Source: Candidatus Gastranaerophilales bacterium (lineage in GTDB: Bacteria > Cyanobacteriota > Vampirovibrionia > Gastranaerophilales > Gastranaerophilaceae). From it: a stretch of 64,000 bases of DNA. Position 1 is the first letter of the stretch. Every line of letters starts with the position of its first letter. The notes beneath the pieces are model-generated. The model was not told the origin of the DNA and did not search any database. It saw only the letters and a list, made by a program, of their open reading frames with translations. This document shows, piece by piece, positions 8,897 through 56,591 of this stretch. The DNA lies in assembly GCA_944326565.1 (NCBI GenBank), contig CALVEL010000006.1, positions 1 through 64,000 on the forward strand, given 5' to 3'. A program made the position numbers and the translations under genes.

Positions 8897-9475
8897 ATGA
8901 CAGAGTATTGCGAAAATAATTTAATAAACCCGAATTGGGCAAAACACGGCTACATTCAAGTCTATACGGGCAACGGCAAAGGTAAGACAACAGCCTCGTT
9001 AGGACTCGCAATGAGAGCTTTGGGCAGGTGTTGGAAAGTTTTAATAATTATGTTTACTAAAGGCGGAGATGACTATGGAGAGCTTAATTCATTTAGAAAT
9101 CTCTCCCCTGAAATTGCAAAAAACTTAACAATCGTCCAAGCAGGACTTGACAGAATTGTCTATGAGAATAATAAAAATGCAAATGATGAAGCTGAAATCA
9201 AAAAAGGATGGGAACTAGCCAAAAAAGTAATTAAAAATGATGAATATAATCTTGTAATTCTTGATGAAGCTAATATTGCAATTGATTTAGGATTAATTGA
9301 TTTAGATGAAGTTGTAGATGTTTTAAAAAACAAACCTGAAGAAATGGAAATTGTACTCACAGGCAGAAATGCTAACCCGAAAATTATCGAATTAGCACAT
9401 CTGGTATCTGAAATAAAACCGATTAAACATTACTGGGATACAGGTATCGCTGCAAGAAAAGGTATTGAATATTAA
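8897..9475 (+). CDS. cobO: Cob(I)alamin adenosyltransferase, CobO/BtuR type (copy 1)
   Basis: CobO/BtuR attaches the 5'-deoxyadenosyl group to cobalamin. The P-loop is GNGKGKTTASLGLAMRALG (about residues 25-43), with the later LVILDEANIA Walker B-like strand, VLTGRNANPKIIELA and the C-terminal IKHYWDTGIAARKGIEY. Length 192 residues is normal. A close paralogue lies at 17782-18315. No other cobalamin synthesis genes are in the window, so it may serve corrinoid salvage. The gene end overlaps by a few bases the end of a decayed pilin-like gene on the other strand. Confidence 0.93.
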   Translation: MTEYCENNLINPNWAKHGYIQVYTGNGKGKTTASLGLAMRALGRCWKVLIIMFTKGGDDYGELNSFRNLSPEIAKNLTIVQAGLDRIVYENNKNANDEAEIKKGWELAKKVIKNDEYNLVILDEANIAIDLGLIDLDEVVDVLKNKPEEMEIVLTGRNANPKIIELAHLVSEIKPIKHYWDTGIAARKGIEY

Positions 9476-17781: not shown

Positions 17782-18315
17782 GTGTTAGAACATGGTTATA
17801 TTCAAATTTACACAGGAGATGGAAAAGGGAAAACAACAGCATCATTAGGTTTAGCACTTCGAGCGCTCGGACATGGATGGAAAGTTTTAATTATTCAATT
17901 TACCAAAGGTGATAGTGCGACATCCTATGGTGAAATAGTATCTTCATCTAAATTTCTTCCGAATCTTGATGTAGTCCAATTTGGAATGGATAGAGTATGT
18001 TATTCACACAATGTTTGTATGGATGATTATAAAGAAGCTAAAAGAGGCTGGGAATTTGCCAAAAAAGCAATACAGTCAGGTGAATATCAACTTATAATTT
18101 TGGACGAAATTAACATTTGTACAGCAATGAATATGATTAAGGTAAGTGAGGTTAAAGAAGCACTTTTGAACAAGCCTGAAAACCTTGAGATAGTTTTGAC
18201 AGGAAGATATGCTCATCCTGAATTAAAAGCAATGGCTCATCTTGTCACAGAAATGAAACCTATCAAACATTATTTTGATATGGGAGTAATGGCAAGACAA
18301 GGAATTGAGTACTAG
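17782..18315 (+). CDS. cobO: Cob(I)alamin adenosyltransferase, CobO/BtuR type (copy 2)
   Basis: This 177-residue paralogue of the gene at 8897 carries the same P-loop (TGDGKGKTTASLGLALRALG), the strand LIILDEINIC, VLTGRYAHPELKAMA and the C-terminal IKHYFDMGVMARQGIEY. The start is a GTG with GGAGG nine bases upstream. Copy 1 has a longer N-terminus by about 15 residues. Both keep the catalytic motifs, so both may be active. It is monocistronic, bounded by the hairpin at 18411-18443. No linked corrinoid transport or synthesis gene. Confidence 0.92.
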   Translation: MLEHGYIQIYTGDGKGKTTASLGLALRALGHGWKVLIIQFTKGDSATSYGEIVSSSKFLPNLDVVQFGMDRVCYSHNVCMDDYKEAKRGWEFAKKAIQSGEYQLIILDEINICTAMNMIKVSEVKEALLNKPENLEIVLTGRYAHPELKAMAHLVTEMKPIKHYFDMGVMARQGIEY

Positions 18316-51962: not shown

Positions 51963-54900
51963 TTGATTAAGTTGATTTTAGAAGGAAGTGTATCATCTAA
52001 TAAAACAGAAATTCTGATAGAAAATTACGCAAAACTCCTAAACAATAGAGTTCCTGCATCTTCTATCCTTGTAATCGTTCAAAATTCTCAACTTAAAAAT
52101 AAATTTGTAGAAAGTACACTTAATCTATTAAAGATACCTGCTGTTGAGAAATTAGAAGTACATTCTTTTTTCTCGCTTGTATACAATACTATTATTGACA
52201 ACTGGGCGGTATTGGAAAATATCAATCCATACCCTGGAAAAGAGATTTTGCCAAATCTTGCAGGACTTGAAGTTTCACAATTTATCCTCAAAGATATTAT
52301 CAAAGAAGTTCAATTTAAAGGTTATAATTCTAAAAAATCACTGCTGCACCAATTATTCAGAAGATATTCTCTTATAGTACAGAATAATTTGACCGATGAT
52401 GAAGTTGATTGGAGATCAAGAGTATTGGGGGAAAGTTTTGCTGATGATGCAAAACTTGCACTTAAAAAATTGCTTGCTAAAACACTTTATCTAAGAGATT
52501 TTGACTATTTAAGACAGGGACTTGTTTTTAATTATATTTATAAAAATACAGAATATTTTAAAAATATTAAATATTTGATTTTGGATGACGGAGATGAAAT
52601 TACTCCAATTTGTTTTGATTTTATAAAATACCTTGCACCGCAATTAAAAGATGTTTTTATTGCTTTTGACAGAAAAGGAGCCAGCAGAACTGGTTATTTA
52701 AGTGCTGACAAAACCGCTGTTTGGGAATTTGAAAAACTTTTTAATGAGCCTATAATTTCTATAGATGCAAACTCTAAATTAAAATTTGATGCTGAAAATA
52801 TCTTTAAAAATATTACTGAAGACCAAAATGAAATTTTACATGATTTTTCACTTCAATCTCCATCTAAACGTGCAAAAATGATAGATCTGGCATCTGAGCA
52901 AATTAACAATCTTTTAAAATCAAAGGTAAAGCCTTCCGAAATTTCAGTGATTACACCTGTAATAGATGACATGTTGAAATTTTCACTTAAAGAAAATATT
53001 AAAAATCATACTAATTTGTTATTTTTATCAGGCAGCGAAAAACTTATTCAAAACCCTCTTGTGCTGTCAGTTTTAACTATTATCAAACTAAACTGCGGAA
53101 TGAGAGATAAATTAAGCACTTTTGACTTGAGAATTATACTTTCTAATTTTTTAGAAATTCCTATAAGATATTGTCGTGAAATCTTAGATAACTTTGACAA
53201 GACCAAAGAAATTATTGAATATCAATTTCCCCACGAAGATTACAACGAAAGATATCAAAAATTCCTCGCTATTGCAAATAATAATAAAAATTCAGAAAGA
53301 TCACTATCCGCGCAAGCTCTTGAGATTTACGAAGAGCTTGTTGATTTGAAAAATTTTGATGCAAACACTTTAAATAAATTTAATTTCTTCATAAAACAGC
53401 TTCAAGAATTTGAAAATATTTTTAAATCAGATTTTGAAAAAAGAAAATCAGAAATTATTACCCAGCTTGAGAATTCAATAATCTCTGAAAACCCATACTC
53501 AATCTTGGATATACAAGAATGGGATCTTGTAATAGGGACTCCTCAAAAAATCATTGACAATCAAATCAAGACAAAATATCAGATATGGCTTGATGTATCA
53601 AGTGATGAATGGATAAAAAGTGATACAGGACCTTTATATAACGCTTGGGTATTCCAACGCGGCTGGTCCAAAGATGAGTTTACAATTGACGACAATATAG
53701 AATTAGGTAAAGAGAAAACTGCGAGAATTTTAAGAAAATTGATTCTATGTGCAGAAGAAAAAATATATACCTATTCAAGCCTTTTTGATGGTAACGGGAT
53801 AGAAAACTTTGGCGGTATTGAAAAATATATTATAGTAGATAGTCCTAAAGAGACACCCTCTGAAATTCAAAAACAATTCAAAATAACACCAAGACCAGAT
53901 CAGCAGCCAGTATTGAATTATAAGTCAGGGCAAATGGCAATTTCTGCGGTTCCAGGAGCCGGCAAGACGACTATTTTATTAGCTCTGATTATTAAACTTT
54001 TAGAAATTGGGGTTAATCCTGAAAATATATTTGTACTGACTTATATGGAATCTGCTGCACGCAATTTTAGAGAAAGAATAAAAACAATTCGTGAAAATTC
54101 CGCTCAACTTCCCAATATAAGTACTATTCATGGACTTGCCCTTAGAATTTTAAAAGAAAACGAAAATTTTGAGCGTCTTGGATTATCCTCAGACTTTGAA
54201 ATTTGTGATGACACTCAACGTTCAAGAATTGTAAAAGAAATTGCTACAAAATTAAAACTAAAAAAAACAGAAACTGATGATTTTGACAGAGCAATATCGG
54301 TATTTAAAATAGGTAACGGTGTTTTTAACTCTAACATTACAGATGCAAAACTTAAAAAATTTCAAATATTTTTTGATGATTACCAAACTACTTTAAAGGC
54401 TTCAAATTTAATAGATTATGATGACATGCTTATATCATCGGTTAGACTTTTAGAAGAAAATCCGGATATTCTCGCGCATTATCAAAATATATGTCATTTT
54501 ATTATTGAAGATGAAGCACAAGATTCATCTGCTATTCAACAGAAACTCATAAATTTATTAAGTGCCAAATACAAAAACCTTATCCGCTGCGGTGACATTA
54601 ATCAGGCTATCACAACAACTTTCTCCAATGCAGATGTCGAAGGATTTAGGAATTTTATAAAAAATTCCGATAACGTAAGCATGGATTGTTCCCAAAGATG
54701 CACAAAAGACGTATGGACTCTTGCTAATGAGCTTGTAAAATTTGCTGATAGCAAAGAAGAAATGCAAAATGCATTTTATAAAATTTTCATGCACCCTGTA
54801 GAAGGTAAAAATCCAATAAGTGAAAATGCGCTTACTGCAAAAATATTTGACAGCACATTAGAAGAAAAAAATTATATTTTATCAGTTATAAAAAACGCCC

Positions 54901-55844
54901 TCAAAAAAAATCCTAAAACTACTATTGGTATTCTTTTAAGAAACAATTTCCAAGTAGTTCAATGGATGGATTTTATAAACAACAGCGGGCTAAAGACAAT
55001 TACAAGAAGTGAATGTCTTGAGCAAAAAACTATATTTCGTGTAATTTATGCTGTGCTTCTAATGATATTAAATCCGTTTGATAATAATATCATTGCGGAT
55101 TGTTACGAAACACTTGCTGAATCTGGGTTTTATAAACAAAGGCTGGGATGTGAGATAAGAAAATATGAAAACCCATTTATTTCAATTAATTGTGACAATA
55201 TAAATAATACTTATCTTGAACAATTCTATTGGGACTTAACTTATTGGCTTTCTTTTCCGCATCTAAGCTCCGATCAACTAGCTATTAAAATAGGTCTTTA
55301 TTATTTTTCAAGTGAAATCGAAAAATCGAATGTATACTTAATTTCGACACTAATAAAACGTATCGGTATAAATAACAGTAATTTTGAATATATTATGACA
55401 AGACTTTTGGAACTTTCTAAAAAAACATCCCTCAGCGGATTCAAATTTTTCTCAGAAGAAGATGAAAGTAATAAAGAATTTTTACAAGGCAAAGTCCAAA
55501 TTATGACATTACATAAATCAAAAGGAGATGAATTCGACCTTGTATTTTTACCTGAAATGACTGAAAAAAATCTTACTCTTGACTTTAATCAAATCAAATT
55601 AAAATCATCAGATTTTATGGAAAATGTAAGGCAAATGAATCCTAATTATAAAGCCAAATCAGAATTTCAACTAAAACAGGAAATTTTATCCGAAAACTTA
55701 CGACTTTTATATGTAGCAATTACAAGAGCAAAAAAATATTTGCAAATTACAATGAGTAAAAAATCTAAATCTTATGAAAAAATAATAGATCAAGAACCAT
55801 CATTAATATTTGATATAATTAATATGAAAGCAGGTAATTTATGA
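51963..55844 (+). CDS. AddA/UvrD-type helicase with N-terminal degenerate helicase half
   Basis: The 1293-residue protein has two SF1 helicase-like halves. The C-terminal half is intact: Walker A SAVPGAGKTTILL (Lys668), Walker B EDEAQDSS (850-854), KVQIMTLHKSKGDEFDLVFL and the C-terminal LRLLYVAITRAKKYLQI. The N-terminal 640 residues look like an inactive copy: a P-loop relic LEGSVSSNKTEILIENY (Lys14 present, the Gly before it changed to Asn), YLILDDGDEITP and late ARILRKLILCAEEKIYTYSS. This resembles AddB, the inactive helicase subunit of AddAB, fused to an AddA-like helicase. It overlaps the following nuclease by 4 bases. Start is TTG; the ribosome binding site is very close. Confidence 0.82.
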   Translation: MIKLILEGSVSSNKTEILIENYAKLLNNRVPASSILVIVQNSQLKNKFVESTLNLLKIPAVEKLEVHSFFSLVYNTIIDNWAVLENINPYPGKEILPNLAGLEVSQFILKDIIKEVQFKGYNSKKSLLHQLFRRYSLIVQNNLTDDEVDWRSRVLGESFADDAKLALKKLLAKTLYLRDFDYLRQGLVFNYIYKNTEYFKNIKYLILDDGDEITPICFDFIKYLAPQLKDVFIAFDRKGASRTGYLSADKTAVWEFEKLFNEPIISIDANSKLKFDAENIFKNITEDQNEILHDFSLQSPSKRAKMIDLASEQINNLLKSKVKPSEISVITPVIDDMLKFSLKENIKNHTNLLFLSGSEKLIQNPLVLSVLTIIKLNCGMRDKLSTFDLRIILSNFLEIPIRYCREILDNFDKTKEIIEYQFPHEDYNERYQKFLAIANNNKNSERSLSAQALEIYEELVDLKNFDANTLNKFNFFIKQLQEFENIFKSDFEKRKSEIITQLENSIISENPYSILDIQEWDLVIGTPQKIIDNQIKTKYQIWLDVSSDEWIKSDTGPLYNAWVFQRGWSKDEFTIDDNIELGKEKTARILRKLILCAEEKIYTYSSLFDGNGIENFGGIEKYIIVDSPKETPSEIQKQFKITPRPDQQPVLNYKSGQMAISAVPGAGKTTILLALIIKLLEIGVNPENIFVLTYMESAARNFRERIKTIRENSAQLPNISTIHGLALRILKENENFERLGLSSDFEICDDTQRSRIVKEIATKLKLKKTETDDFDRAISVFKIGNGVFNSNITDAKLKKFQIFFDDYQTTLKASNLIDYDDMLISSVRLLEENPDILAHYQNICHFIIEDEAQDSSAIQQKLINLLSAKYKNLIRCGDINQAITTTFSNADVEGFRNFIKNSDNVSMDCSQRCTKDVWTLANELVKFADSKEEMQNAFYKIFMHPVEGKNPISENALTAKIFDSTLEEKNYILSVIKNALKKNPKTTIGILLRNNFQVVQWMDFINNSGLKTITRSECLEQKTIFRVIYAVLLMILNPFDNNIIADCYETLAESGFYKQRLGCEIRKYENPFISINCDNINNTYLEQFYWDLTYWLSFPHLSSDQLAIKIGLYYFSSEIEKSNVYLISTLIKRIGINNSNFEYIMTRLLELSKKTSLSGFKFFSEEDESNKEFLQGKVQIMTLHKSKGDEFDLVFLPEMTEKNLTLDFNQIKLKSSDFMENVRQMNPNYKAKSEFQLKQEILSENLRLLYVAITRAKKYLQITMSKKSKSYEKIIDQEPSLIFDIINMKAGNL

Positions 55845-56482
55845 AAAATTTTTCTCCTAATATGTTGAAAACTTTTGAAAGTTGTCCTGTCAAATATGAT
55901 TTAAAATTTAATAAAAAAATAATTGTGCCACAAAATCCAATACTGTTTGAAAAAGGCAAAAAAATTCACGCTCTTGCAAACTATTACCACAAAGGCTCAG
56001 ATATTTCAAAACTTGAAAAAGCTCTTAATAATGAAGAATATAAAATTTGGGAGAGCCTTAAAAATAATGAATACTTTTCAAAAAAATGTATTCATTCTGA
56101 ATATTCAGTCACAGCAAAACTTGATGATTTCTGGATTTTCGGAAGAATTGATGCTATCGTTAAGGAAAATAAAAACTATTACATTTTAGATTACAAAACC
56201 GGAGCTATACCAAAAAATCCGGAAAAAGACTTTCAAACTATGATTTATCTCATTTGTGCCGATTTAATACTGCCCCAAAAAGATTCTTTGTATTTCGTAT
56301 ATATTGATTTGAAAAATAACGAAAATAAAATTATTGAGTTTTCCCCTAATTTAAAAGAAATTTATAAAACAGTACTTAAAGAAAAATGTAAAATAATTAC
56401 TCAAACCTCAGAATTTGAAGGAAAAGAAAACAAATCTATATGTAAATTTTGCGAGTATAATAAAATTTGCAAAATTACATAA
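55841..56482 (+). CDS. PD-(D/E)XK nuclease with iron-sulfur-type cysteines
   Basis: The 213-residue protein carries the RecB-type nuclease core: FGRIDAIVKENK, YYILDYKTGA (Asp and Lys of the motif) and HSEYSVTAKL before it. Four cysteines in the Cas4/AddB arrangement, one near the N-terminus (ESCPVKYDL) and three at the C-terminus (SICKFCEYNKICK), should hold a 4Fe-4S cluster. In AddB these features sit at the C-terminus of the inactive helicase; here they form a separate small gene translationally coupled to the helicase (ATGA overlap). Together they look like a rearranged AddAB recombination nuclease. Confidence 0.85.
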   Translation: MKNFSPNMLKTFESCPVKYDLKFNKKIIVPQNPILFEKGKKIHALANYYHKGSDISKLEKALNNEEYKIWESLKNNEYFSKKCIHSEYSVTAKLDDFWIFGRIDAIVKENKNYYILDYKTGAIPKNPEKDFQTMIYLICADLILPQKDSLYFVYIDLKNNENKIIEFSPNLKEIYKTVLKEKCKIITQTSEFEGKENKSICKFCEYNKICKIT

Positions 56483-56490
56483 AAGAAAAA

Positions 56491-56591
56491 GAGGTGACTT
56501 TTTTATTAAAAAAAGGAGCATTCACCTCTATTGACTTGCAGTAAGCTATGACTCTTACTACAATTATTTCCTTAGCTATGATAAGGAAATA
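56491..56591. repeat. Three adjacent hairpins, two with identical loop
   Basis: GAGGTGA...TCACCTC (56491-56528), GTAAG..CTTAC (around 56542-56559) and TATTTCCTTA/TAAGGAAATA (56565-56591) follow each other. The second and third both enclose GCTATGA. The first could terminate the helicase-nuclease transcript. The rest is unexplained. Confidence 0.4.

What the first reader, a model, noticed from the sequence alone, without database searches (positions are those of the whole stretch)
51963..56482. AddAB-like enzyme in a rearranged gene layout
Seen: an active-looking helicase half (Walker A at Lys668, DEAQD at 850-854) is preceded in the same chain by a degenerate half with a P-loop relic (GSVSSNKT), and the nuclease with four Fe-S-type cysteines is a separate coupled gene. 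Known: in AddAB both the inactive helicase and the Fe-S nuclease domain belong to AddB, and AddA carries a second nuclease domain. Inference: AddB's helicase part fused to AddA and its nuclease split off, with AddA's own nuclease missing. It would be a single-nuclease, two-helicase recombination complex, and possibly a defence or Chi-type machine.
Basis: partly seen in the sequence, partly recalled or inferred. Interest (0 to 1): 0.65.

Follow-up and report, generated by a model that had tools for sequence, protein, structure and literature searches.

The report
Three-part DNA-break enzyme, partly fused
Two neighbouring genes of a gut cyanobacterial relative encode what looks like the enzyme that trims broken DNA ends for repair, built as a dead helicase fused to a working helicase plus a separate DNA cutter; the same three parts occur as separate genes in most cyanobacteria tested, where such an enzyme was thought to be missing.

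Summary
In detail: a 1293-aa fusion of a degenerate and an intact UvrD-like helicase overlaps by 4 nt a 213-aa PD-(D/E)XK nuclease with all four Fe-S cysteines. A confident AlphaFold model shows residues 1-628 as a complete SF1A helicase fold aligning with UvrD, AdnA/AdnB and AddB 2-696; the nuclease model matches the AdnA and AddB nuclease domains best. The genome has no RecC, AddB or other AddA/RecB; an accessory helicase-nuclease exists. Four deep-branching genomes of the phylum carry three separate genes in the same order (dead helicase, motor, nuclease), with a 4-nt overlap at exactly the fusion point. Nearly all sampled cyanobacteria outside one RecC-bearing family keep the same three genes scattered; in 10 tested members of that family all three are absent. 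So the nuclease was already separate; only the helicase fusion is specific to Gastranaerophilales. Most likely this is the phylum's own AddAB/AdnAB-type resection enzyme with one motor and one nuclease. The literature reports model cyanobacteria as lacking parts of RecBCD. A defence role and Chi recognition are untested. New variant of a known kind; interest 0.72.

The parts
51963..53882 (+). N-half (residues 1-640): degenerate SF1A helicase, counterpart of the AddB/AdnA helicase part and of the free-standing ~700-aa protein of cyanobacteria
   Evidence: AlphaFold pLDDT 87; fold matches UvrD, AdnA/AdnB, AddB; hhalign to the cyanobacterial protein E 9e-31 over 616 columns
51984..52007 (+). P-loop relic GSVSSNKT (residues 8-15)
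52584..52598 (+). motif II relic DDGDE (residues 208-212), catalytic Glu position changed
53883..55844 (+). C-half (residues 641-1293 and stop): intact UvrD-like motor without nuclease domain
   Evidence: Pfam PF00580/PF13361; tree groups it with the second UvrD-like helicase of cyanobacteria, apart from PcrA
53946..53969 (+). Walker A AVPGAGKT (662-669, Lys668)
   Evidence: core residues invariant
54510..54524 (+). motif II DEAQD (850-854)
   Evidence: invariant
55841..56482 (+). PD-(D/E)XK nuclease of AddB/AdnA type, overlapping the fusion gene by ATGA
   Evidence: PF12705 2.5e-20; AlphaFold pLDDT 93.6; best structural match AdnA nuclease domain Z 17.5
56150..56197 (+). catalytic D104, D117-x-K119
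   Evidence: invariant in 26 homologues
56441..56470 (+). Fe-S cysteines C201-x2-C204-x5-C210 (with C15)
   Evidence: invariant

Best explanation
The two genes encode a RecBCD/AddAB/AdnAB-type end-resection enzyme specific to this phylum. Residues 1-640 are a catalytically dead helicase, residues 641-1293 are the only motor, and the 213-aa protein is the only nuclease. Shown here by computation: the folds, motifs, gene linkage and co-inheritance of the three parts. Inferred: the products form one complex at a double-strand DNA end; the motor pulls in the 3'-ended strand; the dead helicase splits the strands and scans or holds single-stranded DNA as AddB and RecC do; the Fe-S nuclease cuts the emerging strand, leaving a 3' overhang for RecA. 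In the phylum the ancestral form was probably a three-gene operon (dead helicase - motor - nuclease, coupled by short overlaps). In Gastranaerophilales the first two genes fused at that overlap; in photosynthetic cyanobacteria the three genes scattered; in one family RecBCD stands in their place.
For: Fold of 1-628 with AddB, AdnA/AdnB, UvrD. Intact motor motifs invariant. Nuclease motifs and Fe-S cysteines invariant; AdnA/AddB nuclease domains among the best matches. No RecC, AddB or other AddA/RecB, and only one other PDDEXK_1 protein in the genome. Same order N-motor-nuclease as separate genes in L268, L270, L272, L273, with a -4 nt N/motor junction in all four. Free-standing N homologue found reciprocally (own locus E 1.3e-15). 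Motor half groups with the second cyanobacterial UvrD-like helicase 100/100. Nuclease kept elsewhere in 11 of 11 genomes where it is unlinked. Of 19 photosynthetic genomes with N, 19 have the motor and 18 the nuclease; 10 tested RecC-positive f34 genomes have none of the three.
Against: No sequence profile of AddB or RecC matches residues 1-640; by fold alone UvrD monomers score as well as AddB, so the AddB assignment leans on context. The exclusion against RecBCD rests on one clade (f34), so the Fisher value counts relatives, and a few f11/f25 genomes carry both. No protein-level evidence of a complex. One complete genome of the same family (G143) and five of a sister family (f8) lack it. Some members of f1 carry a nuclease without the C-terminal cysteines.
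Confidence: 0.82

Rival explanations
1. It is an anti-phage or anti-plasmid defence machine (Gabija-like helicase plus nuclease) rather than a housekeeping recombination enzyme.
For: The motor half matches GajB profiles, though these are generic UvrD matches. In S. elongatus, loss of a UvrD (paralogue of PcrA) and of PD-(D/E)XK/Cas4-like genes improves transformation and plasmid upkeep (PMC10653904); that these genes are the same ones was not tested.
Against: Core gene in 37 of 40 relatives, motor orthologues recovered as clades that follow the phylum's groups, core housekeeping neighbours and no defence genes beside it.
Confidence: 0.1
2. The fusion and the nuclease are two independent repair proteins (a helicase with a structural extension and a solo Cas4-like exonuclease) that merely sit together.
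For: The nuclease is unlinked in a clade (L095-L116) and in photosynthetic cyanobacteria; Cas4 profiles match it.
Against: Linkage in the same order in distant lineages with unfused genes; shared presence and absence of all three; AdnA/AddB nuclease domains fit better than Cas4 (Z 17.5 and 14 against 11.8).
Confidence: 0.08
3. The real AddAB-like enzyme of this genome is the 1008-aa helicase-nuclease at C7:96649-99672 and the window's pair has another role.
For: That protein joins a UvrD-type motor and a full PDDEXK_1 domain.
Against: No counterpart appears in several near-complete relatives in which the window's nuclease is the only PDDEXK_1 protein (G004, G005, G009, G019, G020, G023), and it lies among mobile-looking genes with a WYL-type regulator.
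Confidence: 0.05

Closest known systems
AddAB (Bacillus subtilis; PDB 3u44, 4cej)
   Same: dead helicase, live UvrD-like motor, Fe-S PD-(D/E)XK nuclease with C-x2-C-x5-C; fold of 1-628 aligns with AddB 2-696 and the nuclease with AddB 787-1133
   Different: AddB's two parts are on separate chains here; dead helicase fused to the motor; motor has no nuclease; AddB profiles do not match
AdnAB (mycobacteria; PDB 6ppj, 9np6)
   Same: nuclease closest to the AdnA nuclease domain (Z 17.5); N-half aligns with AdnA and AdnB (Z 24-25)
   Different: AdnA and AdnB each carry a nuclease; here one nuclease, on its own chain
RecBCD (E. coli)
   Same: inactive helicase-fold subunit (RecC) plus RecB motor
   Different: no RecC (PF04257) in this genome; RecB's nuclease is fused to the motor; in family f34 RecC is present where this system is absent
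Cas4 / ACE1 nucleases (ACE1 of cyanobacteria: PDB 9iab, 9iac)
   Same: same nuclease superfamily; ACE1 is the nearest solo structure
   Different: here coupled to helicase genes, with no Argonaute or CRISPR genes nearby

Membership tests
AddAB | AddB: inactive helicase N-terminal part with SF1A fold | tested here: met
AddAB | AddB: Fe-S nuclease domain in the same chain as the inactive helicase | tested here: not met
   separate 213-aa gene; also separate in the rest of the phylum where examined
AddAB | AddA: UvrD-like motor with its own C-terminal nuclease | tested here: not met
   chain ends 27 residues after the last helicase match at 1266; no PDDEXK domain in the fusion
AddAB | sequence match to curated AddA/AddB models above cut-off | tested here: not met
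   addA_Gpos 85 of 708 bits; addB_Gpos not matched at this locus; no AddB model matched by A1 members
AdnAB | two motor-nuclease chains, each with its own nuclease | tested here: not met
   one nuclease only
RecBCD | RecC present (PF04257) | tested here: not met
   own genome no match; control E. coli found
RecBCD/AddAB/AdnAB superfamily (works like) | ATP-dependent degradation of linear duplex DNA ends, RecA loading, Chi control | not testable with these tools
   needs biochemistry
Cas4 | curated Cas4 model above cut-off, CRISPR genes nearby | tested here: not met
   TIGR00372 51.3 of 65 bits, although Pfam Cas_Cas4 passes its cut-off; no cas genes seen among the neighbouring ORFs
Gabija (GajAB) | GajA OLD-family ATPase-nuclease partner | tested here: not met
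   partner is PDDEXK_1, no GajA-like gene seen among the neighbouring ORFs

The most novel reading that the evidence does not exclude
A fourth class of RecBCD-type enzyme, ancestral to Cyanobacteriota, made of three separate subunits (dead helicase, motor, Fe-S nuclease), is the unrecognised DNA-break resection machine of most cyanobacteria; its genes are scattered in photosynthetic lineages, partly fused in gut Gastranaerophilales, and replaced by RecBCD in one family that is probably the marine picocyanobacteria.
Probability: 0.68. Interest if true: 0.82.

Novelty: new variant of a known kind. Interest (0 to 1): 0.72.

Why it matters
A published survey says model cyanobacteria lack parts of RecBCD: Synechocystis 6803 and Nostoc 7120 lack recB (E. 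coli type) and recC, and Synechococcus 7942 and 7002 lack recCD (PMC5101192). One paper says S. elongatus encodes AddAB without naming genes in the passage read (PMC10269773). The parts found here name three genes that can be deleted and purified, including a ~700-aa protein that none of the family models searched recognises. They would explain how cyanobacteria and gut Gastranaerophilales start break repair. They also suggest that a RecBCD-type machine can be built with one motor and one nuclease on separate chains.

Tried and rejected
Sequence search of the PDB with the N-half profile: nothing significant, so the fold search was needed. NCBIfam on all 37 N-halves: no helicase or AddB family. 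addB_Gpos in the own genome: weak matches only to the island helicase-nuclease. Vampirovibrionales-like family f8 (name inferred): no N-half or clear nuclease, only PcrA-like helicases. Papers on Gastranaerophilales/Melainabacteria recombination: none relevant. Paper on ACE1 nucleases: none held. Considered and rejected: sequencing artefact or frameshift making the fusion (same open frame in 33 genomes); chance Cas4 neighbour. The idea that the nuclease was split off AddB recently in this lineage was rejected because deep-branching genomes already have it as a separate gene.

Full report
What is there. The window lies in a 99.9% complete genome of the Candidatus Gastranaerophilales, as shown by the titles of its closest named relatives. 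A 1293-aa frame (51963-55844) and a 213-aa frame (55841-56482) overlap by ATGA. Pfam sees a UvrD-type motor in 646-1266 of the first protein, no helicase domain in 1-640, and PDDEXK_1 in the second.

Is it real. The fusion is present in 37 of 40 related genomes, in 33 as one match spanning both halves, down to 38-41% identity, and 80 named loci were fetched, partly from the same genomes. In 84 of 110 loci the nuclease follows directly. The other 26 are a clade (L095-L116) and four distant loci; one of these, L031, is cut near a contig end. In all 11 such genomes checked, the nuclease is found elsewhere as an open frame. So the two genes are kept together in evolution even when not adjacent.

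The N-half. No Pfam, NCBIfam or PDB sequence model reaches it. Its AlphaFold model is confident (pLDDT 87, pTM 0.83) and covers a complete SF1A helicase: Foldseek gives UvrD, AddB (E 4.5e-18), AdnB/AdnA and RecC; VIA-align gives UvrD about 30, AdnB/AdnA about 25, AddB 2-696 at Z 23 over about 575 residues, RecB about 20. The profile is also distantly related to the motor half (hhalign 89%). Its P-loop is canonical in only 6 of 101 fusion proteins and motif II is DDxDE, so it is most likely an inactivated helicase. Fold alone does not single out AddB from UvrD.

The C-half and the nuclease. The motor keeps its SF1A motifs invariant or nearly so and ends soon after motif VI, without a nuclease. 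The nuclease keeps C15, H43, D104, D117, K119, Q132, Y136, C201, C204 and C210 in 26 homologues; its model (pLDDT 93.6) matches the AdnA nuclease domain (Z 17.5 over 207 residues), the cyanobacterial solo nuclease ACE1 (16.3), the AddB nuclease (14) and Cas4 (11.8).

Nothing else in the genome looks like a core enzyme of this kind. UvrD-like proteins other than the fusion are PcrA and a 1008-aa accessory helicase-nuclease. PDDEXK_1 occurs only in that protein and in the window's nuclease. RecC is absent and the AddB model finds nothing beyond weak matches in the island protein. Several near-complete relatives have the window's nuclease as their only PDDEXK_1 protein.

Outside the order. A profile built only from those proteins finds them in nearly all such genomes and finds the window's own N-half at E 1.3e-15; hhalign of the two profiles aligns 616 columns, E 9e-31. 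These genomes also hold a second UvrD-like helicase that groups with the fusion's motor half, 100/100, apart from PcrA, and a 265-300-aa nuclease. In the loci examined the N homologue stands alone. Of 19 such genomes tested for all parts, 19 have the motor (profile scores separate it cleanly from PcrA) and 18 the nuclease.

The operon. In four deep-branching genomes (L268, L270, L272, L273; families f18, f19, f15, f9) the three genes stand side by side in the order N, motor, nuclease. In all four the N stop and a motor ATG overlap by exactly 4 nt, 22-30 codons before Walker A, which is where the two halves join in the fusion. The simplest history is a three-gene coupled operon, fused in Gastranaerophilales by losing the stop or shifting the frame at the overlap, and dispersed in photosynthetic cyanobacteria. 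That these genomes branch deeply is read from their family labels and weak profile scores, not from a species tree. An older origin by splitting an AddB-like gene is possible but not shown.

Exclusion with RecBCD. RecC was found in 28 of 244 genomes, 23 of them in family f34 (1.6-3.0 Mb), none of which appears among the genomes with an N match in either search. In the ten f34 genomes tested, the motor and the nuclease are missing too. The genome sizes and the published statement that marine Prochlorococcus and Synechococcus carry recBCD (PMC5101192) suggest f34 is that group; this is inference. The pattern is one clade and not a set of independent repeats; a few f11/f25 genomes have both.

Function. 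The mechanism proposed is that of AddAB, where the inactive helicase region of AddB recognises Chi and holds the latch (PMC4824097): motor C-half, scanner N-half, Fe-S nuclease. Only the parts are shown; complex formation, resection and Chi control are inferred. A possible functional hint: in S. elongatus, disruption of a UvrD that is a paralogue of PcrA, of cas4 and of a PD-(D/E)XK gene (Synpcc7942_0992) raises transformation and plasmid upkeep (PMC10653904; PMC7125226). I could not map those tags to the families here.

Verdict. It works like AddAB/AdnAB with high likelihood; it is not a member of either, because two defining features of AddAB (nuclease on AddB, nuclease on AddA) and the double nuclease of AdnAB were tested and not met. 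A new variant of the RecBCD-type kind, and a concrete candidate for the resection enzyme reported as missing or incomplete in most cyanobacteria.

Noticed in passing
L005:5647-8673 (G000:C7:96649-99672): 1008-aa single-chain UvrD motor with PDDEXK_1 domain, present in some relatives and not seen in others; beside it a WYL-type regulator and two small FtsZ/tubulin-like genes (L005:4360-5569).
   Followed up: partly
G143 (same family, 99% complete): No match to the N-half in two searches although its close relatives have the fusion; loss or assembly gap unknown.
   Followed up: no
L236, L237, L028 (family f1: G184, G243, G015): The nuclease next to the fusion lacks the C-terminal Fe-S cysteines and ends early, so the cluster seems lost in some lineages; several free cyanobacterial nucleases (L238, L240, L242) also lack the last cysteine.
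   Followed up: partly
family f8 (G107, G125, G135, G257, G261): Same class as the window but no N-half, no clear nuclease and no motor orthologue; what resects breaks there is unknown.
   Followed up: partly
51963-51972: The listed TTG start lies about one base behind AAGAGG; the TTG at 51972 is a likelier start.
   Followed up: partly
8897-9475 and 17782-18315: Two similar small cobinamide adenosyltransferase-like (CobO-type) genes in one window.
   Followed up: no
56483-56530: Inverted repeat AGAGGTGA...TCACCTCT just after the nuclease stop, possibly a terminator.
   Followed up: no
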